A stretch of 26,536 nucleotides of DNA from a virus: IMG/VR virus record IMGVR_UViG_3300030339_000209, positions 1 through 26,536 of that record, one strand, 5' to 3'. Shown one piece after another: positions 2,633-25,819 of this stretch; within the stretch, counting starts at the first letter, position 1; the number at the start of each line of letters is the position of its first letter. The position numbers and the translations under genes were made by a program. The notes beneath the pieces were generated by a model. It was not told the origin of the DNA, searched no databases, and saw nothing but the letters and a program-made list of their open reading frames with translations.

Positions 2633-3703
2633 TTAAATGTTTTTAAGAGGTTTTAATACTACGTATTTTTTTACAGCATCTGTAATAATAGAGAATAATC
2701 CTTTATTGTATTCATCAAAAGCAGGATCTTTATCTTCTCCATATTTTTTACTTATTTGATTTACTAAAGTATTAACAGATTGAGCTGGTTTATTTTTAAA
2801 AGTTACATCTACTCTTAATATATTTCTTGCATCGTTTATAGCTTTAAGCAAAGGAACTCTTTTACTTTCTTCTACTTGAGAAAGATCTAAATTATAATAA
2901 GGATTAGAAGATTCCATATCTGTTTTAAAAGTTATTCCTTTTAAAAATCTTACTTGTTCGTTAGCTCTTGGATTAAATTTTAATGCAGCTTTTAAAGCAT
3001 CTTTATAGTTAGGTAAACTTGGTTTACTATTATAAAGGTTTGCAAACGCATCTTTATAGTTAGGTAAACTTGGTTTACTATTATAAAGGTTTGCAAACGC
3101 ATCTATATAATCTTTTGATTCAAAAGTTTTATTTTTTATATACTCTTGAGCTAATTTAATAAACAAAATATGTGTTTCTTTTCTCATATTTTTAGTATCA
3201 AACAAATATTTTACAACCTTTAAAGTTTCTTCAGCCTCTTTTTTCCATTCTTCTTTTGATCTATCACTTGTGTGTTTAATTGAACTAATGTATCTATCTT
3301 TTAAAAAAGCTTTTATTACAATATCTGTGTTTTTATTACTATAACGTTTTCCATCATAATCAATATAAGTTTCTCCATCTTTTGCAATTTTAGCGTTTCT
3401 AACAAAAACTTCAACATATCCTTTAAGATCTTCAAATTCTCTTAACATTTTAGGGTTTGAAGATATCAAAGATTTTAGTTTGCTAAGAATTTCTTTTTTA
3501 TCTTTTTCTATTATATTTACCCCAAATTCTCCAAAGTGAAAACCGTTTCTAGATTGAATAGAGTAAGAATCTACAATCCAGGTAAGAAAATCAGTAGGGA
3601 TTTTCCAACTAATTTCTTCAAGAAATATTTTTTTATTTGTTTTTTCTTCTAATAATTTAATTAAAGAATTAATTATTAAATTATTTTTTTCTTCTTTAAG
3701 CAT
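2633..3703 (-). CDS. Unknown protein with shared leader motif and internal 17-residue tandem repeat
   Basis: 356-residue protein that I do not recognise. Its N-terminus (LIKLLEEKTNKKIFLEE, about residues 14-30) resembles the short leader found on several other proteins in this window and ends in FLE/LEE, a possible prohead-protease site. Residues about 200-236 contain a perfect 17-residue tandem duplication (unit AFANLYNSKPSLPNYKD) from a 51-bp DNA repeat. The rest is Lys/Glu-rich and predominantly helical in appearance. The start ATG overlaps the stop of the upstream gene in an ATGCTTAA arrangement, so translation is probably coupled. It sits between the YkuD-like gene and gp6, so a virion or tail-associated role is possible. 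Confidence 0.8.
   Translation of the reverse strand: MLKEEKNNLIINSLIKLLEEKTNKKIFLEEISWKIPTDFLTWIVDSYSIQSRNGFHFGEFGVNIIEKDKKEILSKLKSLISSNPKMLREFEDLKGYVEVFVRNAKIAKDGETYIDYDGKRYSNKNTDIVIKAFLKDRYISSIKHTSDRSKEEWKKEAEETLKVVKYLFDTKNMRKETHILFIKLAQEYIKNKTFESKDYIDAFANLYNSKPSLPNYKDAFANLYNSKPSLPNYKDALKAALKFNPRANEQVRFLKGITFKTDMESSNPYYNLDLSQVEESKRVPLLKAINDARNILRVDVTFKNKPAQSVNTLVNQISKKYGEDKDPAFDEYNKGLFSIITDAVKKYVVLKPLKNI
3001..3102. repeat. Perfect 51-bp tandem duplication inside a gene
   Basis: Two identical 51-bp copies, 3001-3051 and 3052-3102. The length is a multiple of three, so the reading frame is kept and the protein gains 17 residues. Complete identity suggests a recent slippage or recombination event, or an assembly artefact. 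Confidence 0.95.
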
Positions 3704-11993: not shown

Positions 11994-12923
11994 TTAATTA
12001 ATTAGTGAATTAAAAACATTGTAATCAACATCATCTTTAAAACCGTTTTCAACACCTTTAACAATTACGCTGATTGCATTGTGGTTATGAAGAGATTCAG
12101 CGTGTGAACAAATAACTTTAAAATCTGTAATCTTTTCTTCTTTAACTAATTCTTGATAAAGAAGTCTTGCAGCATCTTCTACAAATTTTAAATAAGATCC
12201 GTTTAGTTCAGCAAAAGCTTGTTCGTCTTCTCTTTTAACCATAACTTGTGTTTCTGTTTTTAAAGCTTCTAAACAAATTTGTTGTAAATCTTCAATCCAA
12301 ACAAACCCATCAAACTTTACAGAAACTCTTGCTGTACTTCTTTGAGAATGAGGAACTACTGCTTTGTTTCTTTCTTTAGTAGCATGTCTTCCTAACTCAT
12401 AAGAACATGGACATGCACTTGAGTAAATAAAATCAAAATGAATAAACTTATCAAAATCTCCTTTTTGGTTTAGCTTTCCTTCAAGTGTTACATTGTAATA
12501 TTGCCAACCGTCAAGACTTGATCTTAAAGATTTTTGCTTAATAGGATAAGAAAAATTTAAAGAAATCGAAGCTTCAAAAGTATCAAGTTCTTCTTTGTAT
12601 TTTTTCAAAATATCTTCTAATAATGATAAATTGAAAACTTGGTTTTCATATTCATAAAAAGTTCTAACAATTCTACTCATGTTAATTCCTTTTTTGTCAG
12701 CCTCAAGAGATACTGATCCACAAATAGATGTTTTCAAATTAATTGTATTACCTTCTTTCGTTTGAAAGTTTAAAGGTAAGTTAAAATTATGAATCCCTAC
12801 TCTTTGAATTTTCACATTTTGCCCTTGAATGTGAATGTTTCCTGAATTTTGTAAATCTGGAAGAGTTGCAATGTAGTTTTTATCAACTACTAACCCTGCA
12901 TCGTATTTTTTATCTAATCCCAT
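11994..12923 (-). CDS. folE2: GTP cyclohydrolase IB (FolE2/GCYH-IB)
   Basis: 309 residues, full family length. Conserved blocks seen: VQRVGIHNF-like N-terminus, KKGINMSRIVR (78-88), SSACPCSYELGRH (Cys161, Cys163), VVPHSQRSTARVSV (181-191), LKTETQVMVKREDEQAFAEL (211-230), KFVEDAARLL and SHAESLHNHNAISV (263 onward). These include the metal-binding Cys/His set of GCYH-IB. The enzyme converts GTP to 7,8-dihydroneopterin triphosphate, the first step to folate and to 7-deazaguanines (preQ0). In phages folE commonly feeds 7-deazaguanine DNA modification, but no queD/E/C or dpdA is in this window. It is the first gene of the long minus operon. Confidence 0.93.
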   Translation of the reverse strand: MGLDKKYDAGLVVDKNYIATLPDLQNSGNIHIQGQNVKIQRVGIHNFNLPLNFQTKEGNTINLKTSICGSVSLEADKKGINMSRIVRTFYEYENQVFNLSLLEDILKKYKEELDTFEASISLNFSYPIKQKSLRSSLDGWQYYNVTLEGKLNQKGDFDKFIHFDFIYSSACPCSYELGRHATKERNKAVVPHSQRSTARVSVKFDGFVWIEDLQQICLEALKTETQVMVKREDEQAFAELNGSYLKFVEDAARLLYQELVKEEKITDFKVICSHAESLHNHNAISVIVKGVENGFKDDVDYNVFNSLIN

Positions 12924-13601: not shown

Positions 13602-13934
13602 ATGAGATATGTTTATTTAATTAATAAAGAAGGAACTGAAGAATACAAAATTGGGGTTGGTGTTAAACCTGAAAAAAGAATAAAAACTTTACAAACAGGT
13701 AATAGTGAAACTTTAGTTATTGTAAATAAATTTAAATCTGAATTTTCCACTAAAATAGAAACCAATTTACATAAAAGATATTTCGGATCACACAAAAGAG
13801 GAGAATGGTTTTATTTGACAAATAAAGAAGCAAATGATTTTTTAAAATTATGTGAAAATTATGAAAGAGCTTTTAAAGTATTAGCAAATGAAAATATTTT
13901 CTTTCAAAAACAAATAGAACATTTAAAATATTAA
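13602..13934 (+). CDS. T5orf172/MUG113-type GIY-YIG-like protein
   Basis: 110 residues covering one domain. YVYLINKEGTEEYKIGVGV matches the GIY-YIG-related opening of T5orf172/MUG113 proteins. KRIKTLQTGNSETLVIV, IETNLHKRYFGSHKRGEWFY and the ending FLKL are also typical of this family (the metal-binding Glu usually lies in the E-x-x-L/H region). Members are small phage nuclease-like proteins, often of unknown role, some possibly mobile. A bidirectional terminator follows 7 nt after the stop. Confidence 0.8.
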   Translation: MRYVYLINKEGTEEYKIGVGVKPEKRIKTLQTGNSETLVIVNKFKSEFSTKIETNLHKRYFGSHKRGEWFYLTNKEANDFLKLCENYERAFKVLANENIFFQKQIEHLKY

Positions 13935-14261: not shown

Positions 14262-14711
14262 CTAACAATAATTTTCTTTAAACAATGTTTTGATTTTTTC
14301 TTTAAACCCCAAACTACCTGTATCTTCTCCTATTATAACCTTTTTTTTACTCATTCTCTCAAGTTTTTCTTTCAACAATGAAAGTTCTAATATATTGTTT
14401 TTATCTTCTAAAAAATCTCTTTTGATGTAATTTTGTATTTTAGTTTTTAAATAGTCTTTTTCAGAAATCTTTCCACCTATTATTTTTTCTACTATAGAAA
14501 TAAATTTATTTGCATATAACTCTGCGGTTGTATTTCCTTTTAAAACTTTAGCGCCAAAATCAACCATAACCTTTTCATCTTTCTCAGATAAACTATTTGT
14601 TGTATTTAACTTTGGCTCTGATCTCTTTGCTGCTGCTAAAACCATATTAAGAATTACATAACTTTGTTCTTCAAATTGTGGGTTAATATAATTTTGCGAT
14701 GTTATTTCCAT
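14262..14711 (-). CDS. Unknown protein with leader-type motif near its C-terminus
   Basis: 149 residues. Residues 108-130 (LELSLLKEKLERMSKKKVII, then GED) match the leader motif that is N-terminal in other proteins of this window, here internal. If processed at IGE it would release the last 20 residues. Rest helical (VILNMVLAAAKR). A promoter-like element lies just upstream. Confidence 0.7.
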   Translation of the reverse strand: MEITSQNYINPQFEEQSYVILNMVLAAAKRSEPKLNTTNSLSEKDEKVMVDFGAKVLKGNTTAELYANKFISIVEKIIGGKISEKDYLKTKIQNYIKRDFLEDKNNILELSLLKEKLERMSKKKVIIGEDTGSLGFKEKIKTLFKENYC

Positions 14712-14773: not shown

Positions 14774-17755
14774 TTATTCTAATAATTGATCAAAATAACT
14801 ATCATCTGAATAAGTGCTTCCTAAGTTAACAAAATTTCTTTCAATTGTTTTTAACATACCATCTCTATAGTCAGCTTGTTTTCTTTCTATGAAGAATATA
14901 TAAAAACACGCCATTGTTAAACTCATAAGTAGGTCATCATGTTTTCCTTCAGCATGGTCTCTTCTTCCTCTTTTACTCCAAACCCATGTGTACATTTCAT
15001 TAATAATCATTGTACAAGGAATAATTAATTCTTTAGTTCTTAAAACTTCTTCAAGTTTATCTCCACCTAATGCTCTAGTTTTTTCTGATTGCCAAAATCC
15101 AATTTTTCTTTTTTTATCTTTAGTTGTAGGATCATCTTTTTTAAGAGTAGAGTAAAATATGTTAGTATATTTATAAAAATCTCTTAACACTAACAAAACA
15201 GATAAACCAAACTGATGTTCTATAATTACTAAAGCTTTGCCATATTCTTTTGCTTTTTCGAATATTATTTCTGCAAATTTTGTTGTTTCAAATTGATCTT
15301 TATAAGTAGCTACAATTTCAAAAGTAGTTAAATTAATGATTACAAAGGTGGAATAATCCGACCCATCTCCTGTTGCAACGTCAGAAACAAGAATATATTT
15401 ACACCCTTCAACATATGGTTTGTATTGTTTGTAATTTTTGTAAGGGCCACTTTTAACTTCATTTATTTGAGGGATATCTTTCGCAATTAACTCGTGCTCT
15501 CTAATAACTTCTGGATCTAAGACTTCACCACCAGAACCTGCAAAACTGCAATCTAATTCACAACGAGTTAGTCTTGGGCCTAGTTTTTTTGCTTCTATAT
15601 CATACCATGGACTTCTTATTTTTCCATCTTTAATAAAATTATATTCCTCTTTGCATTTACATTTATAACGTTGAACATTTTTTTTATTAGTCATATCAGG
15701 CCAAGAATCTCCGTTCATGAATTCTAAAGTGCCTCCATCCGGATGATTTTTATCTATTTTCCATCTATATAAACCTAAGTTATAAATCGGATGCTCAGTC
15801 CAGTGTGCATCAATTATATTCCAGCCGTTTTCTTCAGCGTTTGTATACTGGTCAAAGTACCATCCTTGGCTACCTTTTGGTGTGTTATGGGAGATTATTG
15901 AATTGTAAACCACTGAATGACACCAGTTTACATCATTTGTTTCAGGTAAAGAAAAATCATAAGTATAGTTCTGTTTTTCTTCTATAGATTTGATTTGAGT
16001 CCATACCGAATTTTCAATTAAAACTTTATCTTGTATTTCTTTTACTCTTTCATTGTTTAAAAAATCTTCATTGGTCGATGAAATATGATTAATTAATTTT
16101 TCTATATTTGCTCTTCCAGGATTACTATTGTAATGAATATAAATTTTGTGTTTTGTTCTAATTGTATCTACAGAAGTTTTTCCTATTTTGCATAATTCTC
16201 TTACAATTTTCATCCCGCTAGGAATTGGTCTAGCAAATACTTCTTTGTTTGATTTTCTAGTATTAGCCTTCCTTTCTAACCTGAATCCTATTTCATCATG
16301 AAACTTTGTTGCAAAAAAACCATCTATTTCTAAATTATGAGAATCAAATCTATGAACTATTCCTTTTTTGCTATAATAAGAATTCATTTTTTCTACCGGA
16401 ATTATTGATAGCAAAGATAAAATTCCGAAATTAGATAATATAATTCTAATTTGCTCAATAAGCAAAGGTGATTTTAAATTTATACCTACTCTATTCTTTT
16501 TTATAGTAGAATAACCATCTCCATCGAATATACCTTGTAGTAAAGCTTTCATGTTTTCTTTACTAATAGACATTAGTCTTTTAGGTATTTGTTTTTTTGA
16601 AGCTGTATAACTAAGATCAAATCCTAAATATTCTAAAAACTCTATTAAAACTTTTCTGCAAATTTCATAAGATACACCTATATTACTAGGGTTTTTATAG
16701 TAACTTAACCCTAATTTATCAAATATTTCAGTAATTCCATCTCCACAAGATATAGTTATACTCTTATGACTCGACGACCCTTTTGTTATATATAAACCTA
16801 GAAAATAACACCAATCAGGTGTTAAAAAGTTTGGAATATTAACTTCTTTTCTACCATTTCCTAACTTATTAACAAAATCGGAAATATCATCATTATTCCC
16901 CCAACAATCTGTTCCATATTGGTGACATAACCAATCTCCTACTTCTAATTCTTTAGCTTTAGTCCATTGATATTCTCCATTTTTATATGACCAATATTTA
17001 TGTTCGTTACTACTTTCAACAGAGTTAAAACTTGTTGTAATTTTTCTTGTATCACAATAACCATTAACATGAAAAAGACTACCTTGGCGTTTAATATCTT
17101 TTCCTCTAACATTATATTGCTCTATTTCGCATGTTTGTTTCTTTGAACAATCAATATCTTCTGGAATAAAATCTTTTATTTGTTGAATACCATTATCTGT
17201 AAAGACATAAGTATCATCTGTAACACAAGAAATTATGATACAACTCCCTTGAGATCTAGTTAAAGTAAGACCTGCCGATGCCCAAATATCAGTCATCCAT
17301 GAGATAGCCGCGCAGTTGCTTGACACTATTTCGTTTGTAAAATATTCGCTACCTTTCTCTACATCTAACAAGTCAAATAATTCAATTTCTTTTACTATTT
17401 TCTTTTTAGAAATTATTTTACTTCCAGAAACTAATAAATCTCCTTTTTTTACAAACTTTAAATATTGAAAAGAATCATCCAACATTTTAATTTTATGATA
17501 AGGAGAGCCTGTCAATTCTTTTCCATTAGAAAGTTTAATTTCGTAACAATAGGGTTTTGTTATTTTTTTTATTGAAGAAAAGTCACTCCATCCGGTTGGT
17601 GTTAAAACTTCCCATTCAGATATTTTTTTTATTTCTTTTGAATCTTGAGCATTAACATTATCTATATCGATAACATTAAAATCTATTTCATCACCATCTT
17701 CAGGTAAGTCAACATTATTTTCTTCTATATATTTTTGAAGTTCGTTATAATCCAC
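14774..17755 (-). CDS. terL: Large terminase, C-terminal half: split-intein C-fragment, short extein, second intein, nuclease domain
   Basis: 993-residue precursor starting with GTG directly after, and in frame with, the TAA of the spanin-like gene. Order: residues 1-147 intein C-fragment ending IVSSN; extein 148-176 (CAAISWMTDIWASAGLTLTR...); residues 177-624 a complete LAGLIDADG intein (starts CVTDDTYVF, ends IISHN); then extein 625-993 starting TPKGSQGW. The last part holds the rest of the ATPase domain and the RNase H-like nuclease, with Asp792 in VSDVATGDGS, Glu846 in VIIEHQFG and Asp940/941 in EGKHDDLLM. Joined to the N-half at 18710-19336 it forms a 573-residue TerL, a normal T4-like length. 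TerL drives ATP-dependent packaging of DNA into the prohead and cuts the concatemer. Confidence 0.93.
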   Translation of the reverse strand: MDYNELQKYIEENNVDLPEDGDEIDFNVIDIDNVNAQDSKEIKKISEWEVLTPTGWSDFSSIKKITKPYCYEIKLSNGKELTGSPYHKIKMLDDSFQYLKFVKKGDLLVSGSKIISKKKIVKEIELFDLLDVEKGSEYFTNEIVSSNCAAISWMTDIWASAGLTLTRSQGSCIIISCVTDDTYVFTDNGIQQIKDFIPEDIDCSKKQTCEIEQYNVRGKDIKRQGSLFHVNGYCDTRKITTSFNSVESSNEHKYWSYKNGEYQWTKAKELEVGDWLCHQYGTDCWGNNDDISDFVNKLGNGRKEVNIPNFLTPDWCYFLGLYITKGSSSHKSITISCGDGITEIFDKLGLSYYKNPSNIGVSYEICRKVLIEFLEYLGFDLSYTASKKQIPKRLMSISKENMKALLQGIFDGDGYSTIKKNRVGINLKSPLLIEQIRIILSNFGILSLLSIIPVEKMNSYYSKKGIVHRFDSHNLEIDGFFATKFHDEIGFRLERKANTRKSNKEVFARPIPSGMKIVRELCKIGKTSVDTIRTKHKIYIHYNSNPGRANIEKLINHISSTNEDFLNNERVKEIQDKVLIENSVWTQIKSIEEKQNYTYDFSLPETNDVNWCHSVVYNSIISHNTPKGSQGWYFDQYTNAEENGWNIIDAHWTEHPIYNLGLYRWKIDKNHPDGGTLEFMNGDSWPDMTNKKNVQRYKCKCKEEYNFIKDGKIRSPWYDIEAKKLGPRLTRCELDCSFAGSGGEVLDPEVIREHELIAKDIPQINEVKSGPYKNYKQYKPYVEGCKYILVSDVATGDGSDYSTFVIINLTTFEIVATYKDQFETTKFAEIIFEKAKEYGKALVIIEHQFGLSVLLVLRDFYKYTNIFYSTLKKDDPTTKDKKRKIGFWQSEKTRALGGDKLEEVLRTKELIIPCTMIINEMYTWVWSKRGRRDHAEGKHDDLLMSLTMACFYIFFIERKQADYRDGMLKTIERNFVNLGSTYSDDSYFDQLLE
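15884..17227 (-). other. Contiguous intein with LAGLIDADG domain in terL (intein 2)
   Basis: 448-residue insertion, precursor residues 177-624. Cys at the first position with block A CVTDDTYVFTDNGIQQIKDF, block-B-like SSNEHKYW, and the C-terminal end NSIISHN followed by Thr. LAGLIDADG-like helices are FLGLYITKG (318-326) and LQGIFDGDG (406-414). The first lacks the catalytic acid (Lys in its place). The insertion site is exactly IIIS^TPKG, the conserved ATPase coupling motif after Walker B. Confidence 0.9.
17315..17755 (-). other. C-terminal fragment of a naturally split intein (intein 1)
   Basis: 147 residues. After an acidic extension (residues 1-47) the intein core begins WEVLTPTGWSDFSSI; block B is LTGSPYHKIK (His87); the end is LDVEKGSEYFTNEIVSSN with Cys+1. 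The layout and the sequence style (LTPTGWSDF..., DVEKGSEYFTN) resemble the atypically split AceL-TerL intein known from Ace Lake phage terminases, which also has a very short N-fragment. Penultimate residue is Ser instead of the usual His. Confidence 0.87.
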
Positions 17756-18433
17756 TTAGTCTTTTTTATTAATAAACTTTAAATTTACTTTAGAATTAGG
17801 TCTTGTTAAATTACCACTTCCTCCATAAACCCATTCTCTAAAATTCCAAGGGAGAATATTTTTAATTTTCCAAGGTTTTTCTTTATATCTATAAACTGCG
17901 CAAAAAATAGTATCATTAGTATATAAATCAAAATCAAGCTTGAACTCAGGAATCTTTAATTTAAAATTAATACTATCCCAAGGATTAGTCCATACACCAA
18001 ACATTAAAGTATCAATTTTACTTACAACAGTATCATGTTGAGTAATAGTATCACGTAAAACAACACTTCCTTGACTATGGGTTTTTATAGAACCAGTATT
18101 CATTGATATTAAATTTCTAATTTTAATATCTTTTACCTCTAATTGTTTTTTCATAAATTCTATCTCTTTTGAGCTAGATTCTTTAATTTCTTTTTTTGAA
18201 AGAATTAAAACGCCGTTTTCAATTACTATTTGATCTAACTTATCTTTGTATTCTTTTGATTGTTTATTTAAAGCAGCGACATTTGCTGTTTGTCTAATAG
18301 CATTAGCTTCTTGATTGTTTCTATCAATAAAAAGATACAAAAACATTAAAACAATTATTATTATCCCTATTGTTTTGTAAACTTTGGGATTTAAAACAAA
18401 CTTTCCTATAGAAGTTAATAACGCTAAATTCAT
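17756..18433 (-). CDS. Membrane-anchored spanin-like (Rz-type) protein
   Basis: 225 residues: an N-terminal transmembrane helix at about 19-38 (KTIGIIIIVLMFLYLFI), a long coiled-coil region (about 45-110, KQSKEYKDKLDQIVIENG), then a soluble C-terminal part ending in basic residues. The topology, one N-in anchor plus periplasmic coiled coil, matches i-spanins and similar proteins of Bacteroidota phages; assignment is by topology, not by a diagnostic motif. It lies between the two terL halves, its stop TAA is directly followed in frame by the GTG of terL-C, and it is 12 nt from the upstream small gene. Confidence 0.6.
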   Translation of the reverse strand: MNLALLTSIGKFVLNPKVYKTIGIIIIVLMFLYLFIDRNNQEANAIRQTANVAALNKQSKEYKDKLDQIVIENGVLILSKKEIKESSSKEIEFMKKQLEVKDIKIRNLISMNTGSIKTHSQGSVVLRDTITQHDTVVSKIDTLMFGVWTNPWDSINFKLKIPEFKLDFDLYTNDTIFCAVYRYKEKPWKIKNILPWNFREWVYGGSGNLTRPNSKVNLKFINKKD

Positions 18434-18445
18434 TTTTTTTATATT

Positions 18446-18670
18446 TTATATTTTATATTTAAAACCAATTATATTTTTACCTTCTCCTTGTCTAATAGAA
18501 AACTCTTCACTATGTAATAATAATGTTTGGTGAGAATTTATTTCTGGATTGTAAAAGGAACATTCATATAGAATTTGATCATATTTTATTTGAACCATAG
18601 AAATTGTTGCTTTTTGTTTACTTACAATAATAACTACTGGAGTTCCGCATTTAAATATTTCTAATTTCAT
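18446..18670 (-). CDS. Small beta-rich unknown protein
   Basis: 74 residues (MKLEIFKCGTPVVIIVSKQK...) with the rhythm of a small SH3-like barrel: GTPVVII, then TISMVQIKYDQILYECSFYN, then HSEEFSI. Such proteins are frequent in Bacteroidota phages but unassigned. First gene after a promoter-like box, transcribed toward the spanin-like gene and terL-C. Confidence 0.65.
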   Translation of the reverse strand: MKLEIFKCGTPVVIIVSKQKATISMVQIKYDQILYECSFYNPEINSHQTLLLHSEEFSIRQGEGKNIIGFKYKI

Positions 18671-18682
18671 TACAATTTGTTT

Positions 18683-18700
18683 TTTGTTTTAAATACTAAG
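18683..18700 (-). promoter_or_regulatory. Promoter-like element between terL halves
   Basis: Minus strand TTAGTATTTAAAACAA, a variant of the recurrent box, 14-30 nt before the ATG at 18670 and after the stop of terL-N. It would let the C-half of terL be transcribed separately from the N-half. Confidence 0.4.
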
Positions 18701-18709
18701 GATTATCAA

Positions 18710-19336
18710 CTATTTATAACTTTCATCATAAAATATTTTACCTATTTCTACTTTACTTAAAGCTTTGCTTGATTTATTTCGTATTAATACGTTAGTATCA
18801 AATGAAATGGATTCATCTATACATAGAAGTGATATTGTATCTCCACGACAAGCATCAGGTTTATTAGCTTCTGCTAAGATAGTACTACCGTTAACTAACC
18901 CAAAAGATTCTTTAGCATCATTACCAACAATATAATCAGGTATTAACCATGGAGCTTTTTTTCTTGCTCCATCTAAAAACTCTCTAACTCCTTTTAAAAA
19001 CTTACGAGATGTTTTTTTCTCTTGTGCTAATGCATTTACGACTTTTTTCTTTTTTGTTGCCATATACCATGCAACATAAGCTTGAGAAACAGTTGTTAAG
19101 CCTGTTTGTCTTGTTTTCATAGTTAAATTATAACTAAACTCTTCAAAACTTTTTATTGCTCTTTCTTGATAAGGATAAGGATTAAATAAAGATTCAAGAC
19201 CAGTAGCAGGGTCTGAAATAGGAAAATAATTTTTAATTGTATATAAAGGATCTCTAATACACTTAATATATTCTTTGAGAACTACTTCTGTTCTAGTTCT
19301 ATCATCTAAAGTTCCTAAATATTCTAAAGTCAGCAT
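18710..19336 (-). CDS. terL: Large terminase, N-terminal half fused to split-intein N-fragment
   Basis: 208 residues. Residues 1-175 are the N-terminal ATPase part of TerL: adenine-binding region (FNPYPYQERAIKSFEEF), a deviant Walker A (KTRQTGLTT, with the Lys upstream as in many terminases) and Walker B LLCIDE at 170-175. Residues 176-208 (SISFDTNVLIRNKSS... to the TAG stop) match intein block A. The chain therefore stops in the middle of Walker B unless trans-spliced to the downstream half, where the motif continues with CAAISW. It starts 3 nt after the 2H-phosphoesterase stop. Confidence 0.92.
   Translation of the reverse strand: MLTLEYLGTLDDRTRTEVVLKEYIKCIRDPLYTIKNYFPISDPATGLESLFNPYPYQERAIKSFEEFSYNLTMKTRQTGLTTVSQAYVAWYMATKKKKVVNALAQEKKTSRKFLKGVREFLDGARKKAPWLIPDYIVGNDAKESFGLVNGSTILAEANKPDACRGDTISLLCIDESISFDTNVLIRNKSSKALSKVEIGKIFYDESYK
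18713..18811 (-). other. N-terminal fragment of the naturally split intein (intein 1)
   Basis: 33 residues: SISFDTNVLIRNKSS..., then KVEIGKIFYDESYK. Block A pattern with Ser as the nucleophile and DT at positions 5-6. The short basic fragment (6 Lys/Arg) complements the acidic extension of the C-fragment about 1 kb downstream. Confidence 0.87.
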
Positions 19337-19338
19337 AA

Positions 19339-20001
19339 TTATTTTATTATAGTTTTCGGTAATTTTTCCTCTTTTGATAAAATATGTTCAAACTTTTTAG
19401 TTTTATTTCCATTATCAATTGGTTCCGAATAAACAATTTTATAAGGATTAACTGTAAAAAACTCTTCTTTAAACATTTCAATATATTTTTTTGCTGTACC
19501 TGAATTAAGATAAGCTATAGTAGAGTGTGGATGATAATCAGGAAAATCTGACGTATAAGAAAAGTTTAATGTTAAATCTTTATTAATTTTAAACAAAGGA
19601 TCTTTTTCCTTTGAATATATTCCTCTACCTACTTGTTGTTCGCAATCAAATTTAAGTACATCAAAATCTTTATTGTTAAAAGAAGAAACATTATGTAAAA
19701 GCAATTGTGGAAGTTTAGTTTTTAGAATTTCTTTAAATACTTCTTCACTATTTGTTTCTTTATAATGAAAACCATATAATAAAGTTAAATGAGGTTCAGT
19801 TTCAAGTCCGAATCCTGGTTTATTATAAATATCATCTGTTGATATTTTTTTTTGAAAATCTTTTAATTCAGGAAAGTCAAAATACAACATTGCGCATCCA
19901 AATTTATACTTCCCTTCGTTTACTTCTTTAAGAATAACTTTTTTACTACTTACAAGCTCTAGACGCTCTTTTAACATATGTATTTTCTCTTGTTTATTCA
20001 T
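19339..20001 (-). CDS. 2H phosphoesterase with N-terminal leader motif
   Basis: 220 residues. Two H-x-(T/S) motifs, PHLTLLYGF (His71, Thr73) and YHPHSTIAYL (His159, Thr161), are the signature of the 2H phosphoesterase superfamily (LigT/CPDase-like), acting on 2'-5' or cyclic phosphodiesters. Residues about 8-26 (HMLKERLELVSSKKVILKE) form the shared leader ending LKE. Known phage 2H enzymes include the anti-CBASS protein Acb1 of T4, so degradation of defence signalling nucleotides is one possibility; RNA repair is another. Upstream lie an attenuator-like leader (20067-20130) and a promoter-like box; terL-N follows after 2 nt. Confidence 0.8.
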   Translation of the reverse strand: MNKQEKIHMLKERLELVSSKKVILKEVNEGKYKFGCAMLYFDFPELKDFQKKISTDDIYNKPGFGLETEPHLTLLYGFHYKETNSEEVFKEILKTKLPQLLLHNVSSFNNKDFDVLKFDCEQQVGRGIYSKEKDPLFKINKDLTLNFSYTSDFPDYHPHSTIAYLNSGTAKKYIEMFKEEFFTVNPYKIVYSEPIDNGNKTKKFEHILSKEEKLPKTIIK

Positions 20002-20195: not shown

Positions 20196-20855
20196 ATGAA
20201 AGAAACTGTACTTGCAAAAAAAATTGTAACTTATTTTGAAAACAAAAACCTTACTTGTTATAAAGAAGTAAGCAAATCAGGTACAGGTGGAGCAATTAGA
20301 TGTGATTGCTATTTTGTAAAAAAAGAAAAAGATGTTATAGTAGATGCATTTGTAATTGAAGTGAAAACAACTTTAAGTTTAAAAGTAATAGAACAAGCAT
20401 TTAGATGGAAAGCTTTTGCAAAAAAAGTTTACATTGGAGTTCCTAAACCTAAAAGAAGACCAGTAAAATCAAGAAGATTTGCTGTTTATGTTTGTCAAAA
20501 ACTAGGTGTAGGGATTTTTGAAGTTTCAGAAAATGGTAATGTAGAAATGTTAACAGAATCTGAAATTAACCCTAAGTTTAAACTACCGCCTTTGTTTGAA
20601 GAACAGAAAAAGTCAAAAGCTGGAAATGCTAAATCTGAATACTTTACAGTTTACAAAAAAACAATCGCGAATATAAATGATTTTATGAAAGATAAAACAG
20701 AATATAAATTATCTGATCTTTTTAAAGAAATCGACCATCATTACTCAAATATTTCTTCCGCTCAAGGATGTATAAAAAAATATATCAAAAAAGGAGTGAT
20801 TACAAATTATAAAATCAAACAAAAAGGAAAACAATTATATATTGAAAAAATTTAA
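20196..20855 (+). CDS. PD-(D/E)XK-like nuclease domain protein with C-terminal winged helix
   Basis: 219 residues. N-terminal domain: CDCYFVKKEKDVIVDAFVIE with VIEVKTT giving the ExK of a PD-(D/E)XK core (Asp in RCDCYF), then EQAFRWKAFAKKVYIGVP, typical of restriction-like folds that discuss host-transported DNA ends. The C-terminal part (KLSDLFKEIDHHYSNISSAQ, then KKGVITNYKIKQKGKQLYIE) reads as a winged helix. Lone plus-strand gene among minus-strand units. Could be an accessory nuclease or a DNA-binding regulator; function not established. Confidence 0.65.
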   Translation: MKETVLAKKIVTYFENKNLTCYKEVSKSGTGGAIRCDCYFVKKEKDVIVDAFVIEVKTTLSLKVIEQAFRWKAFAKKVYIGVPKPKRRPVKSRRFAVYVCQKLGVGIFEVSENGNVEMLTESEINPKFKLPPLFEEQKKSKAGNAKSEYFTVYKKTIANINDFMKDKTEYKLSDLFKEIDHHYSNISSAQGCIKKYIKKGVITNYKIKQKGKQLYIEKI

Positions 20856-21886
20856 CTAATAATTTTTCCAGAAATAGCACTTTTTAGTTTTACTTCTTCT
20901 TTAGAAAAAACTTTGCTATTATCATTACACCAAAAATCTCCATTTATTTTTTTCGAAATACCTTCCAAAGAATTAATGTTATTTTTCGCACAAGAATAAT
21001 AATTTCCAACATAAGTTGGACCTCCTTTTAGATTTATTAATTGATTGTTAGAGCAATCAAAAAAATCTCCTATGTTTTGTGGACAACCGATTAAAGAAGT
21101 TAATTTGTTATACGAGCAATTGAAATCTATTCTTACCTTTTGAGGTCCGTTTTTTAAAGAAGTTAATTGGTTGTATGAACAATTAAAATCTGTATTAATT
21201 TCACTAGGGCTTCCTGTCAAAGACAATAAACTGTTATTATGACATTCGTAAGACATTCCTACTTGCTGTGGTCCTCCAGATAAGCTTTTTAATTTATTAT
21301 GATGACAATAAAAATCTTTACCTATACTGCTTGCGCATCCTTCAAGAGATGATAATTCATTAAAAGAGCAATTTAAAACTCCAGGAATTATATTAGTACA
21401 TCCTTTTAAAGTTAACAAGCTATTATACATACATAAAAAACTGCTATTAAGTTTTTTAGGACTATATTCTAAAGATTCTAAACGATTATGACTGCAATTA
21501 TAAATACCAGATACTGCAATTGGTCCGTTTTTTAAAGTTAATAATTGATTATCAGAACAATCAAAATTCCCTTTTACATAACCAAAATTAATAGGAATTC
21601 TTTTTAAATTTAAACTTTTTATATAAACATCGCCTTCAACATTAATAGTGTATTTTTTATAATAAGTTTTGAAGATATTTAATTCTTGAGAACCTAAAAT
21701 TCCTTTAAAGATTATTTCATTTTTATCAATAGTAATTAATAAATCCAATTTTCTTTTTAATTCAGATATATCTTCTTTTTTGTTAACTTTATTAATTACA
21801 TTTTCATCTTCTGAAAGTATAATTAACTTATTAGATATACTTTCAAGTTTTTCTATTAATATTTGAAGTTTTTGAGAATTATTCAT
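20852..21886 (-). CDS. Leucine-rich-repeat protein with leader motif
   Basis: 344 residues. N-terminal leader QKLQILIEKLESISNKLIIL followed by SED (possible LSE site). From about residue 95 to 330 there are around ten repeats of roughly 21 residues with the pattern L-x-x-L-x-G-x-P-x-x-V-x-x-x-F-x-C-S-x-N-x, e.g. FNCSYNQLTSLKNGPQKVRI. This is an LRR type seen in several large phages, forming a curved solenoid probably for protein binding. Its stop overlaps the convergent plus-strand gene by 4 nt. It has its own promoter-like box. Confidence 0.75.
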   Translation of the reverse strand: MNNSQKLQILIEKLESISNKLIILSEDENVINKVNKKEDISELKRKLDLLITIDKNEIIFKGILGSQELNIFKTYYKKYTINVEGDVYIKSLNLKRIPINFGYVKGNFDCSDNQLLTLKNGPIAVSGIYNCSHNRLESLEYSPKKLNSSFLCMYNSLLTLKGCTNIIPGVLNCSFNELSSLEGCASSIGKDFYCHHNKLKSLSGGPQQVGMSYECHNNSLLSLTGSPSEINTDFNCSYNQLTSLKNGPQKVRIDFNCSYNKLTSLIGCPQNIGDFFDCSNNQLINLKGGPTYVGNYYSCAKNNINSLEGISKKINGDFWCNDNSKVFSKEEVKLKSAISGKIIS

Positions 21887-23572: not shown

Positions 23573-24265
23573 TTACTTTTCTTCACTAAGTAATTGATCG
23601 TATCTTGCTTGAGTAACAACTAATGCTTTGTATTGTACATCAGATGTTTTTCCCCCTTCTGGAGCGTTTTTATTCCAGCTTGAGTAAGATTTTCTTGCTA
23701 ATTCTTCAGCTTCTTTTTGATCAAGTTTTTCTTCTCCAATTCCACCAATTACATCCCATTTTTCTTCTCCATCTTCTGTCCATCTTGCGATAGCTATGTA
23801 ATTTTTTGTATCAATGTTGTCGGTTGATTCTTCAATAGGTAAAGAAGAAACTTCTTTAAGAGGCGATTTACTGTTATAATTAGATAAAGCAAAACCATTT
23901 AATGTTTTGTTTATAACTTCATAATCTGGATAAATTCTTTGAATACTTTCTATTGTGTCATCCCATTCTGCTACATTATGAACTGCACCTCTAACTCTTT
24001 TTCCTTTATTATTAGTATAAAACTTACATTGGAAAGAAACAAGTTCTCCTCCTTTGCTTACACTTAAAGTTTCGGTTTCATCATCAATATTAACTACTTC
24101 TAAAATTGCTTCTTTTATTTCTTTTTCAACTTCTGAATCTGTTTTTTTTGGATATCTATCTCCATAATAAACATCTTCTTTAAATACTACTTTCTTTTTG
24201 CTAATACGTTGAATCTTTTCAACTAACAAGTCTATTTCTAATTGCTTTTCTTTTTCTGTTTTCAT
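23573..24265 (-). CDS. Unknown protein with near-identical leader (copy A)
   Basis: 230 residues. The first 30 residues (MKTEKEKQLEIDLLVEKIQR, then ISKKKVVFKE) are almost identical to the start of the next gene upstream, while the rest is unrelated. The leader ends FKE followed by D. The body contains SFQCKFYTNNKGKRVRGAV and a C-terminal segment IAIARWTEDGEEKWDVIGGI, beta-rich, not recognised. Probably cotranscribed with the gene at 25010 (19-nt gap). Confidence 0.7.
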   Translation of the reverse strand: MKTEKEKQLEIDLLVEKIQRISKKKVVFKEDVYYGDRYPKKTDSEVEKEIKEAILEVVNIDDETETLSVSKGGELVSFQCKFYTNNKGKRVRGAVHNVAEWDDTIESIQRIYPDYEVINKTLNGFALSNYNSKSPLKEVSSLPIEESTDNIDTKNYIAIARWTEDGEEKWDVIGGIGEEKLDQKEAEELARKSYSSWNKNAPEGGKTSDVQYKALVVTQARYDQLLSEEK

Positions 24266-24284
24266 TAATCTATTATAAATTATA

Positions 24285-25010
24285 TTATTTTTTTAAAGAA
24301 ATACTAAATTCACACCAATCTTTTTCAGATGTATTTAAATGTAAATCTACTTTTTTATACCAAGGATATTCTTTTGCCCATTGTTTGAAAAGCGCAGCAT
24401 ATCTTTTATACATTCCTGGTGCCCAAATTCTTTGATCATTATCTTCTCTCCAATCTCTGTCTCCATCGTCATAATCATGACCTTCTTCATCATCTATCCA
24501 ATTACCTAAATGTCTAAAATCACTAGTAATATAACTACCTCTTACTTCAATTTCATTAGGTCTTTGACCATCTGGACGAAAGCTATAAAAATCACTCTTT
24601 ATTTTTGAAACGATTTCTTCAGATTTGTTTACTCTACTTACTTTTTTTACAGGAGTTGAAGATACTACAGAAGGTGTGAAACCTTTAGGGGTTTTAGTTG
24701 GCGAATACCATTTTCCTGGTCTTTGATTCATATCTCTAACAACTTTATTCGCTTTTATTAACCTTTGTAATACAGGAATACTCATTGTTTGAGTTGGAAA
24801 AAGTCCAATTAATTCTTTTGCTACAGCACCTTCAGAACCTTTAGAATTTAAATAATCTAATACCTTTTGTTCGTATTCAGAACCGTAAGCCATTTCTACA
24901 ATAACTTCTTTTTCGGCCGATTCTTTAAAAACTACTTTCTTTTTGCTAATGCGCTGTATCTTTTCAATTAATAAATCTATTTCTAGTTGTTTTTCTTTCT
25001 CTGTTTTCAT
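24285..25010 (-). CDS. Unknown protein with near-identical leader (copy B) and winged-helix-like domain
   Basis: 242 residues from the ATG at 25010. A longer in-frame start at 25046 would add MFLIIFNKKLLL from the promoter region and is unlikely, since the ATG at 25010 begins the shared MKTEKEKQ leader. After the leader, residues about 40-95 (YEQKVLDYLNSKGSEGAVAK, then VLQRLIKANKVVRDM) look like a winged helix, and the C-terminal part is Trp/Asp-rich (HDYDDGDRDWREDND). Not recognised. Confidence 0.7.
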   Translation of the reverse strand: MKTEKEKQLEIDLLIEKIQRISKKKVVFKESAEKEVIVEMAYGSEYEQKVLDYLNSKGSEGAVAKELIGLFPTQTMSIPVLQRLIKANKVVRDMNQRPGKWYSPTKTPKGFTPSVVSSTPVKKVSRVNKSEEIVSKIKSDFYSFRPDGQRPNEIEVRGSYITSDFRHLGNWIDDEEGHDYDDGDRDWREDNDQRIWAPGMYKRYAALFKQWAKEYPWYKKVDLHLNTSEKDWCEFSISLKK

Positions 25011-25022
25011 CAATAAAAGTTT

Positions 25023-25036
25023 TTTATTAAATATGA
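25023..25036 (-). promoter_or_regulatory. Promoter-like element (TCATATTTAATAAA)
   Basis: Copy of the recurrent box directly after the tRNA-array terminator, 13 nt upstream of the ATG at 25010. Confidence 0.5.
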
Positions 25037-25040
25037 TTAA

Positions 25041-25087
25041 AAACAAAAAACCGTTTTAAAAATATTTTATTATCTTTAAAACGGTTT
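25041..25087 (-). terminator. Rho-independent terminator of the tRNA array
   Basis: Stem AAACCGTTTTAAA/TTTAAAACGGTTT with a T-tract on the minus strand, 8 nt after the last tRNA-like element. Confidence 0.85.
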
Positions 25088-25094
25088 AAAAAAG

Positions 25095-25168
25095 TCCCTT
25101 TAGTCAGACTCGAACTGACACAGTATTTCTCCGACCGCATCTAAAACGGTTCTTTACGACATAAAGGA
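25095..25168 (-). tRNA. tRNA-like element, Leu(TAG)-type, D-arm missing, overlapping a gene end
   Basis: Minus strand: acceptor TCCTTTA/TAAAGGG (7 pairs, one T·G), anticodon stem ACCGT/GCGGT with loop TTTAGAT (anticodon TAG), a 14-nt variable region as in tRNA-Leu, and T-arm GTCAG/CTGAC with loop TTCGAGT. Only 11 nt lie between acceptor and anticodon stem, so there is no room for a D-arm. The 5' 28 nt are also the last codons of the endonuclease-like ORF ending at 25141. It may be a degraded or hybrid tRNA. Confidence 0.5.
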
Positions 25169-25819
25169 TAAAGTTTCATTAAAAAAGAAACTTCTTTTAT
25201 TAAAAAATTAGGGTTTCCATATATTAATTTTATTTGTTTTTCTACTATATCTAGCTTTTCTTTTTGCTTTGTAATGCAATAAGGGTTTTTAGGGTCTAAA
25301 TAAACATTAAAATCTTGTAGATAAAAATCTGCATAATATCTATGTTTTTTTTCATTTTTATCTAACCAGACTACGGCAGTTTTAGGTCTTAACCAAATAA
25401 TATTGTTTTCGTCTAACCATTTTGCTATTTTAACTTCCCAATTAGAATCAAAAAACTGCCCGTTATATTCTTGCTTTTTAATTCCCTTAGCATTATATGA
25501 TTTCATTTTCGCAAAGCACTCATCACTGCATAAACGTGGAAAATGACCACTTTTTAATTTTATAGAAATAAATTTTTTTTTACAATATGTACATTCCAAT
25601 ATTTTTTCTTGTCTCAACACTTGTTTTTACTTGGGATTTCTTTTTTTTTACCCCTTCATCACTCTTATAATATGCTTTTAAATTTTCTTGCACTTTTCTT
25701 TTACTTTCTTCTGTTCTGGGTTTTCTTCTTGTATTGTTAAATTTAGCTGCGCATGATTTACTACAAAACCTAGGATTGCTAGTTTCTTTATCACAAAATA
25801 AACACTTAGTTGTTTTCAT
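25141..25819 (-). pseudogene. Homing-endonuclease-like gene (zinc fingers, NUMOD3, PD-(D/E)XK), frameshifted
   Basis: Two overlapping ORFs read as one protein. ORF 1 (25580-25819, 79 residues) has a zinc knuckle CLFCDKE...RFCSKSCAAKFN and a NUMOD3-like DNA-binding helix RKPRTEESKRKVQENLKAYY. ORF 2 (25141-25620, GTG start) has a second knuckle CTYCKKKF...RLCSDECF and a nuclease domain SNWEVKIAKWLDENNI...RYYADFYLQDFNVYLDPKN. A one-base shift at the A6 run (25602-25607 on the plus strand, six T) would fuse them through RKILECTYC. It may be a real mutation, a programmed +1 shift or a homopolymer error. Such genes are typical invaders of phage tRNA clusters. Confidence 0.7.

What the first reader, a model, noticed from the sequence alone, without database searches (positions are those of the whole stretch)
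14774..19336. TerL encoded by two separate genes joined by a naturally split intein inside Walker B
terL-N (18710-19336) stops after LLCIDE followed by a 33-residue intein N-fragment starting SISFDTNVL. terL-C (14774-17755) starts with a 147-residue C-fragment ending IVSSN before CAAISW. Removing both gives the normal terminase sequence IDE-CAAISWMTDIW. A functional motor then requires trans-splicing of two proteins. Related atypically split inteins in phage TerL are known (AceL-TerL from an Ace Lake metagenome), but this is a separate case with a longer C-fragment, Ser1 and an SSN|C end.
Basis: partly seen in the sequence, partly recalled or inferred. Interest (0 to 1): 0.9.

Follow-up and report, generated by a model that had tools for sequence, protein, structure and literature searches.

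The report
Phage packaging motor in two genes
A large uncultured phage encodes its DNA-packaging motor as two separate genes whose products are very probably stitched together by a naturally split self-splicing element, an unusual but already known arrangement of which this is a further natural example.

Summary
TerL is encoded by two genes, terL-N (18710-19336) and terL-C (14774-17755), which end and begin with the two parts of an atypically split intein (33 + 147 aa) directly after the Walker B Asp-Glu. Four related viral contigs have one uninterrupted TerL (52-56% identical) that aligns across the junction without a gap. The C-part is clearly an intein: profile E = 2.7e-22; its predicted fold best matches the Cat atypically split intein, 6DSL. 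The N-part is too short to be significant in a blind scan but stands out at its own position.
It is not a new kind. GOS-TerL already has Ser1/Cys+1, and T4-like phages SEA1, HY03, TG1 and PspYZU05 have terL fractured at the same site. Of 80 related viral loci 65 look split, 54 of them in TerL.
Particular here: two ordinary phage genes, no homing nuclease, between the halves; a 43-aa acidic leader; an SSN end without the penultimate His; a second, contiguous intein in terL-C, so the motor needs one trans- and one cis-splicing event; and three more fractured genes in a near-identical 111-kb record.

The parts
18812..19336 (-). terL-N extein, 175 aa (ATPase with P-loop region and Walker B LLCIDE)
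   Evidence: PHROG 5989 terminase large subunit 5.7e-29; relatives L003-L006 match residues 1-175 or 2-175 at 58-60% and go on without a break
18713..18811 (-). IntN, 33 aa, Ser1 (SISFDTNVLIRNKSSKALSKVEIGKIFYDESYK); stop codon at 18710-18712
   Evidence: scored against an alignment of 30 IntN of other atypically split phage inteins: 1 of 4,625 scored shuffles reaches it and it is the best of 166 ORF tails; blind scan not significant
18446..18670 (-). 74-aa ORF between the halves, no convincing family match
   Evidence: Pfam best 0.066, below cut-off; coding bias +21 over 74 codons
17756..18433 (-). 225-aa DUF6549 protein between the halves (N-terminal hydrophobic stretch by eye; membrane-anchored by inference); not a nuclease
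   Evidence: PF20186 3.7e-14; a close-relative scan of viral contigs found only G001
17627..17755 (-). 43-codon acidic leader of IntC (GTG start, net charge -11)
   Evidence: coding bias +28.8 and charge; pLDDT 58-79 by ten-residue block, one helix at residues 3-13
17315..17626 (-). IntC core, 104 aa, HINT fold, block B H87, block F D128, ends SSN before Cys+1 (residues numbered from the GTG)
   Evidence: HMM E = 2.7e-22; phmmer 4.7e-11 to 6DSL_B CatC; AF2 pLDDT 91-98 by block and Foldseek 5.3e-9, TM 0.83 of target, to 6DSL_B
17228..17314 (-). terL extein, 29 aa between the two inteins (CAAISWMTDIWASAGLTLTRSQGSCIIIS)
   Evidence: gap-free with L003-L006 on both sides
15884..17227 (-). second, contiguous intein of 448 aa with LAGLIDADG endonuclease, Cys1 ... 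SHN|Thr+1, in the TerL coupling-motif region (IIIS|TPKG; motif name recalled)
   Evidence: PF14890 2.8e-12 and PF14528 3.6e-8; relatives have IS-TPKG uninterrupted
14777..15883 (-). terL-C extein, 369 aa (rest of ATPase and nuclease domain); stop codon at 14774-14776
   Evidence: 48-54% to L003-L006 over 354-375 aa; PHROG 24361 terminase 2.7e-13

Best explanation
The phage makes TerL from two precursors: TerL(1-175)-IntN(33) and IntC(147)-TerL-intein2(448)-TerL. IntN folds onto IntC to complete a HINT domain of the TerL atypical (S2) split type. Ser1 attacks the Glu175-Ser1 peptide bond, the acyl group passes to Cys+1, the terminal Asn of SSN cyclises, and an S-N shift leaves IDE-CAAISW joined by a normal peptide bond. 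Separately, intein2 removes itself in cis and joins IIIS to TPKG. Only then is a complete 573-aa motor present; neither half alone holds P-loop, Walker B, coupling motif and nuclease together. Shown: the anatomy, the homology, the predicted fold of IntC, and uninterrupted relatives. Inferred: binding, catalysis, order of events, and need for splicing. The arrangement most likely descends from an intein with a homing-nuclease gene between its parts, the nuclease gene having been lost and two phage genes now standing there (inference).
For: Exact, gap-free junctions against four uninterrupted relatives, two of them 98.5% alike. IntC profile E = 2.7e-22, PDB profile best hit CatC 7.5e-35, Foldseek best hit CatC. 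Same-site contiguous mini-inteins in SRB7757, Vme-32 and L116/L119 and same-site split genes in SEA1, HY03, TG1, PspYZU05, L055 and L059. IntN above shuffles. One TerL N-part and one C-part in the 111-kb record. No intron family match at E up to 1 in the window. Ser1, block B His, block F Asp, terminal Asn and Cys+1 are all present. GOS-TerL with the same Ser1/Cys+1 pair splices, with measured rates (PMC11766414, passages).
Against: No expression or splicing data. The penultimate His is Ser (76 of 77 placed relatives have His, one Lys; but the search pattern asked for SHN). IntN alone is not significant in a blind scan. GTG start without a tested initiation signal. Two curated intein-end models do not call the split intein confidently: intein_Cterm finds nothing in the window, intein_Nterm gives the IntC only 16.6 bits, under its cut-off of 24.5. 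G001 may be incomplete, so an intact second terL elsewhere is not excluded.
Confidence: 0.87

Rival explanations
1. The split intein is dead or inefficient (penultimate Ser, Ser1) and the two TerL chains work as a non-covalent complex, like the genes-in-pieces ribonucleotide reductase of phage Aeh1.
For: SSN instead of SHN; PMC10448857 (passages) cites a homing-nuclease-split reductase that works as two peptides (the phage name is recalled).
Against: The Aeh1 case lacks inteins (recalled). Here both intein parts keep the nucleophiles, block B His, block F Asp and terminal Asn, and Cys+1 stands where relatives have Val or Ala, exactly where splicing needs a nucleophile. A Walker B cut would split the ATPase core.
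Confidence: 0.09
2. The two parts are joined at RNA level by an intron or by ribosome bypassing.
For: The halves lie on one strand 954 nt apart, in the same order as in an intact gene.
Against: No intron family in Rfam at E up to 1; two ORFs with coding bias lie between; both ends carry intein sequence that RNA splicing would leave in the protein.
Confidence: 0.02
3. Decayed or misassembled locus: a broken terL copy or chimeric contig.
For: Metagenomic contig; the usual penultimate His is missing.
Against: The same arrangement in a second record that differs by substitutions and an indel, though I could not learn whether it comes from an independent sample; all frames open; one TerL only in 111 kb; other phages with the same arrangement.
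Confidence: 0.02

Closest known systems
GOS-TerL split intein (Bachmann and Mootz 2015; the paper is not held, known here only through passages of PMC11766414, PMC10189870 and PMC13014065)
   Same: TerL extein by name, naturally split at the atypical S2 position, Ser1/Cys+1, short IntN (37), no motif-NX His by report
   Different: Published lengths 37/115 against 33/147 here; its sequence and insertion site were not available to me
AceL-TerL split intein (25/104; loci L113/L114 have these lengths)
   Same: Same kind of split position, TerL extein, homologous IntC; no gene between the halves in L113/L114
   Different: Inserted at EFE|CEFLGS, not after Walker B; Cys1; SHN end
Fractured terL of T4-like phages SEA1, HY03, TG1, PspYZU05
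   Same: Same site (IDE|C), IntN 41-43, IntC 107, two genes
   Different: Cys1, SHN end, one ORF between the halves that some records name endonuclease, no second intein in the terL genes read
L055 (IMGVR_UViG_3300009503_000208) split terL
   Same: Same site; IntC 46-47% identical, the closest of the loci apart from G001; IntN CSFGDTKITIKN...
   Different: Cys1, SHN, 106-nt gap without an ORF
Mycobacteriophage TerL inteins TerL1-e (Walker B) and TerL6-f (C-motif) (PMC5050341, passages)
   Same: Inteins in the same two TerL motifs as the two inteins here; representatives of both spliced in a reporter
   Different: The two sites are in different TerL families, not in one protein; described as whole inteins, the word split does not occur in that text
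Delta-group crAss-like TerL with two inteins (PMC7886860, passages) and Campylobacter phage IBB_35 terL interrupted by an intein and a nuclease-bearing intron (PMC3322345, passages)
   Same: More than one insertion, or a nuclease-split terL, already in print
   Different: The passages do not describe one split plus one contiguous intein in TerL

Membership tests
Atypically split TerL intein (AceL/GOS/Cat type) | HINT-fold IntC homologous to CatC | tested here: met
   phmmer 4.7e-11; AF2 plus Foldseek 5.3e-9
Atypically split TerL intein (AceL/GOS/Cat type) | Short IntN (25-37 aa), split after helix alpha1 (S2) | tested here: met
   33 aa ending after the VEIGKIFYDESYK segment, in register with an alignment of 30 IntN; S2 definition from a PMC13014065 passage. 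The helix is inferred from the alignment; IntN was not modelled
Atypically split TerL intein (AceL/GOS/Cat type) | Terminase large subunit extein | tested here: met
Atypically split TerL intein (AceL/GOS/Cat type) | Ser or Cys at 1, Asn at the end, Cys at +1 | tested here: met
   sequence
Atypically split TerL intein (AceL/GOS/Cat type) | Penultimate His (usual in inteins, not defining: inteins without it are known to splice, recalled) | tested here: not met
   Ser instead
Atypically split TerL intein (AceL/GOS/Cat type) | Protein trans-splicing activity | not testable with these tools
   needs coexpression
Fractured gene (Dassa et al. 2009, recalled; the paper is not held) | Two genes, each with one extein half and one intein part | tested here: met
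Fractured gene (Dassa et al. 2009, recalled; the paper is not held) | Free-standing homing nuclease gene between the halves (frequent, not universal) | tested here: not met
   DUF6549 and an orphan ORF lie between. In the survey 38 of 49 gaps hold an ORF of at least 45 aa and 11 hold none, e.g. L055, L070, L113

The most novel reading that the evidence does not exclude
The phage has placed packaging, replicative helicase, replicative polymerase and nucleotide synthesis all under protein trans-splicing with four mutually orthogonal split inteins, and the motor additionally under cis-splicing. Splicing would then act as a timing or quality checkpoint (the homing nuclease in terL having been lost while the split was kept), and the Ser1/Cys+1/SSN intein with its acidic leader would be a distinct fragment-recognition and catalytic variant.
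Probability: 0.15. Interest if true: 0.7.

Novelty: new member of a known kind. Interest (0 to 1): 0.42.

Why it matters
[quoted passage not shown] It shows a fractured terL without a nuclease gene between its halves. And it points to a phage in which four core genes look fractured, a natural test of whether split inteins in one cell are orthogonal and of whether splicing limits phage assembly.

Tried and rejected
Intron or recoding: Rfam at E up to 1 gave five tRNAs and two sub-threshold matches, all outside the terL genes. GTG start doubted: the 43-codon leader has coding bias in its own frame only, so a non-standard start just before the core is not needed. IntN as a stand-alone homology claim: dropped. 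The first profile (which contained one untrimmed row by my error) gave E = 1 for terL-N and the refitted one E = 0.75; only the test at its own position is used.

DUF6549 gene as part of a conserved terL neighbourhood: no match in the stretches held of L003-L006, and a scan that finds close relatives only returned no viral contig but G001. Relatives of the second intein in viral contigs: only G001, again by a close-relative scan. In isolate phages it matches 53 records; of the 20 listed, 13 are annotated helicase, one terminase (Perkons), at 23.7-27.7% identity. Bacterial genomes: 12 stretches carried the pattern, none was a relative. L003-L006 were found by terL-N and were not selected for lacking inteins in TerL; L003 and L004 are 98.5% alike, so they count as three independent cases at most.

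Bias told: the 80 viral loci were found with a pattern that includes SHN, so their penultimate His says little, and loci ending like the window would be missed. Split or contiguous was assigned by script from the open frame upstream; N-halves were picked by a motif and by eye.
Full report
What is there. The window is a 26,536-base IMG/VR virus record. On the minus strand terL-N (18710-19336, 208 aa) precedes terL-C (14774-17755, 993 aa), with two genes between them (74 aa and 225 aa). terL-N reads TerL up to LLCIDE and then 33 residues starting SISFDT. terL-C reads 147 residues ending IVSSN, then CAAISW... of TerL (29 residues), then a 448-residue insert from CVTDDTY to SHN, then TPKGSQG... 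of TerL (369 residues). 175 + 29 + 369 gives 573 residues.

The junctions are exact. Four related TerL proteins from other viral contigs (L003-L006; 52-56% identical to the joined 573 residues over 566-569 aligned positions; L003 and L004 are 98.5% alike) are uninterrupted and align without a gap at both places: IDE|VAAIT and IS|TPKG against IDE|CAAIS and IS|TPKG. Two more distant TerL (31% and 30%) also run through the split junction without a gap. At the split site the window has Cys where the relatives have Val or Ala, which is what a +1 nucleophile needs.

The C-part is an intein. A profile of seven C-parts of TerL inteins finds residues 44-147 of terL-C with E = 2.7e-22 among 2,860 six-frame segments of the window and of G001 from base 19,001 on. 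Against the PDB, the 147 residues alone best match CatC, the consensus atypically split TerL intein (4.7e-11); a 43-sequence profile gives 7.5e-35. An AlphaFold2 model (mean pLDDT 87.9; core blocks 91-98) has its best Foldseek match in CatC of 6DSL (E 5.3e-9, TM 0.83 of the target), followed by other inteins. The general intein-end models are less sure: intein_Cterm finds nothing in the window and intein_Nterm scores part of the C-part at 16.6 bits, below its cut-off of 24.5.

The N-part is weaker on its own. With 30 N-parts of other split phage inteins as profile, a blind six-frame search ranks terL-N fourth with E = 0.75, not significant; an earlier profile with one bad row gave E = 1. Tested where it must lie, the 33-residue tail scores 10.7 bits; 1 of 4,625 scored shuffles (5,000 made) does as well, none of 20,000 in an ungapped score, and it is the best of 166 mechanical ORF tails of G001, itself included.

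It is not a sequencing slip. A second record (G001, 111,457 b) matches window 3-24276 at 99.95-99.96% and has the same arrangement; in 13,962 b compared base by base it differs by 3 substitutions and a 7-bp deletion. Whether the two come from independent samples I could not learn. G001 holds one match to the N-extein and one to the C-extein.

The family in isolate phages. tblastn with the intein core (E up to 10) matches 77 of 50,697 records; of the 60 listed, the majority are annotated as terminase or DNA packaging protein. I opened eight. SEA1, HY03, TG1 and PspYZU05 have terL in two genes split at the same Walker B site, IntN 41-43 and IntC 107 residues, with an ORF between that some records of this group name endonuclease. 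SRB7757 has a contiguous mini-intein of 136 residues at this site. Vme-32 has a contiguous one here, and its ORF begins with a C-part at the P-loop, whose N-half I did not look for; PhiW-14 is split at the P-loop. Campylobacter F341 begins its TerL C-half with a C-part; I did not look for its N-half.

The family in IMG/VR. A scan with the C-part profile gave 84 relatives, of which 80 loci were returned. By script, 12 are contiguous, 3 could not be placed, and 65 look split (51 distinct cores); 54 of the 65 and 11 of the 12 have TerL downstream by an HMM made from ten TerL, 2 of the 65 end too soon to tell, and 9 lie in other proteins or were not recognised. Seven of the 65 lie at the Walker B site, among them two that are by their contig lengths the PspYZU05 and TG1 genomes again. 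An N-half was matched for 49 loci; 38 of the 49 gaps hold an ORF of at least 45 aa, and 34 of these ORFs fall into three similarity groups of 19, 11 and 4 that by eye look like GIY-YIG, VSR-like and T4-type homing nucleases; 11 gaps hold none. Several loci are nearly identical contigs, so these are not independent events.

What is particular here. First, Ser1 with Cys+1. [quoted passage not shown] The window intein has a single His in all, in block B (by eye). Second, the end is SSN, not SHN. Third, a 43-residue leader of net charge -11 precedes the core, while IntN is +2. Of 65 split-like loci only one has as long a leader (44; median 9). Fourth, between the halves lie a DUF6549 gene (3.7e-14) and an orphan, no recognisable nuclease. 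A T5orf172/GIY-YIG ORF lies beyond terL at 13602-13934. Fifth, a contiguous LAGLIDADG intein sits in the coupling-motif region of the same protein. Mycobacteriophage TerL carry inteins in the same two motifs, in different proteins, and representatives of both splice (PMC5050341, passages).

More fractured genes. In G001 three further genes are cut the same way: a ribonucleotide reductase (Pfam barrel positions 1-212 in one ORF and 212-523 in the next-but-one, a 265-aa ORF between), a DnaB-like helicase (73479-74810 and 76069-76518, with a DUF559-containing ORF between; Pfam sees only the intein end in the short C-half), and DNA polymerase III alpha (positions 10-106 and 110-260, no ORF of 100 aa or more between). 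Split inteins of the first two kinds are known from metagenomes (recalled). Nine paper searches (split intein with terminase, TerL, AceL-TerL, GOS TerL, fractured gene, several of these genes, Walker B) showed, in the titles and abstract beginnings listed, none that announces this phage or four fractured genes in one genome; I read passages of only some of the papers, and the library lacks most subscription journals.

Mechanism. Most likely ordinary class 1 trans-splicing after assembly of IntN on IntC, followed or preceded by cis-splicing of the second intein. Anatomy, homology and the predicted IntC fold are shown; catalysis is inferred. The main rival is a dead intein with non-covalent TerL halves (about 9%). 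Filed as a new member of the atypically split TerL inteins: all defining sequence features tested are met, the usual penultimate His is not, and the activity could not be tested.

Noticed in passing
G001 (near-identical 111-kb record, loci L044-L046): 65117-66277/67071-68813, 73479-74810/76069-76518, 93775-95361/95549-98029: Three more fractured genes with split inteins: ribonucleotide reductase, DnaB-like helicase, DNA polymerase III alpha (cut in PPDID|CDVSE). ORFs that look nuclease-like lie between the halves of the first two (DUF559 over its cut-off in the second; the first by eye).
   Followed up: partly
window 19339-20001, 20852-21886, 23573-24265, 24285-25046 (-), and 14262-14711 (-) internally; also L043 11817-12332, L047, L048: Unrelated proteins share a ~25-residue segment (xxLLxEKLxxISxKKVxxKE), mostly at the N-terminus, ending in a hydrophobic-x-Glu. 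It resembles T4 capsid-targeting peptides cut by the prohead protease (recalled). One pattern, written from the window's own copies, matches 5 of 73 window segments, 5 of 283 in G001 (4 the same genes) and 3 of 171 in relatives. Candidates for packaged and injected proteins, one of them 2H-phosphoesterase/Acb1-like (below cut-off).
   Followed up: partly
window 17753-17758: The TAA of the DUF6549 gene is directly followed, in the same frame, by the GTG of terL-C; readthrough would fuse a DUF6549 protein to IntC.
   Followed up: no
window 13602-13934 (+) and 25141-25620 (-): Two possible free-standing homing nucleases: T5orf172/GIY-YIG type (7.4e-9) and a zinc-ribbon/VSR-like ORF (by eye).
   Followed up: no
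window 11994-12923 (-); G001 69329-70126 and 76910-77665: A FolE2-like GTP cyclohydrolase and two QueC-like ORFs by eye, suggesting 7-deazaguanine DNA modification.
   Followed up: no
L086, L115: TerL apparently cut by two split inteins (three pieces), by motif and eye; L086 has a Ser1 N-part (SVSYETCL) at the EFE site, whose C-part is not in the locus held.
   Followed up: no
L084/L085: The IntC frame is open only if TGA is read as a residue (EWEIDTPNGW with Trp), so this phage may use a recoded UGA (L084 only).
   Followed up: no
L006 contig (G005) 11848-16398 and 21628-22683: This relative has no intein in TerL but five Intein_splicing matches elsewhere, four of them in one 1,838-aa open frame downstream.
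   Followed up: no
window 19091-19114 (-): The P-loop of this TerL clade reads TRQTGLTT, without the Lys of GKT; relatives L003-L006 also lack it.
   Followed up: no
window 2994-3109 (-): A tandem repeat of about 50 bases inside ORF 2633-3703 (DAFANLYNSKPSLPNYK twice).
   Followed up: no
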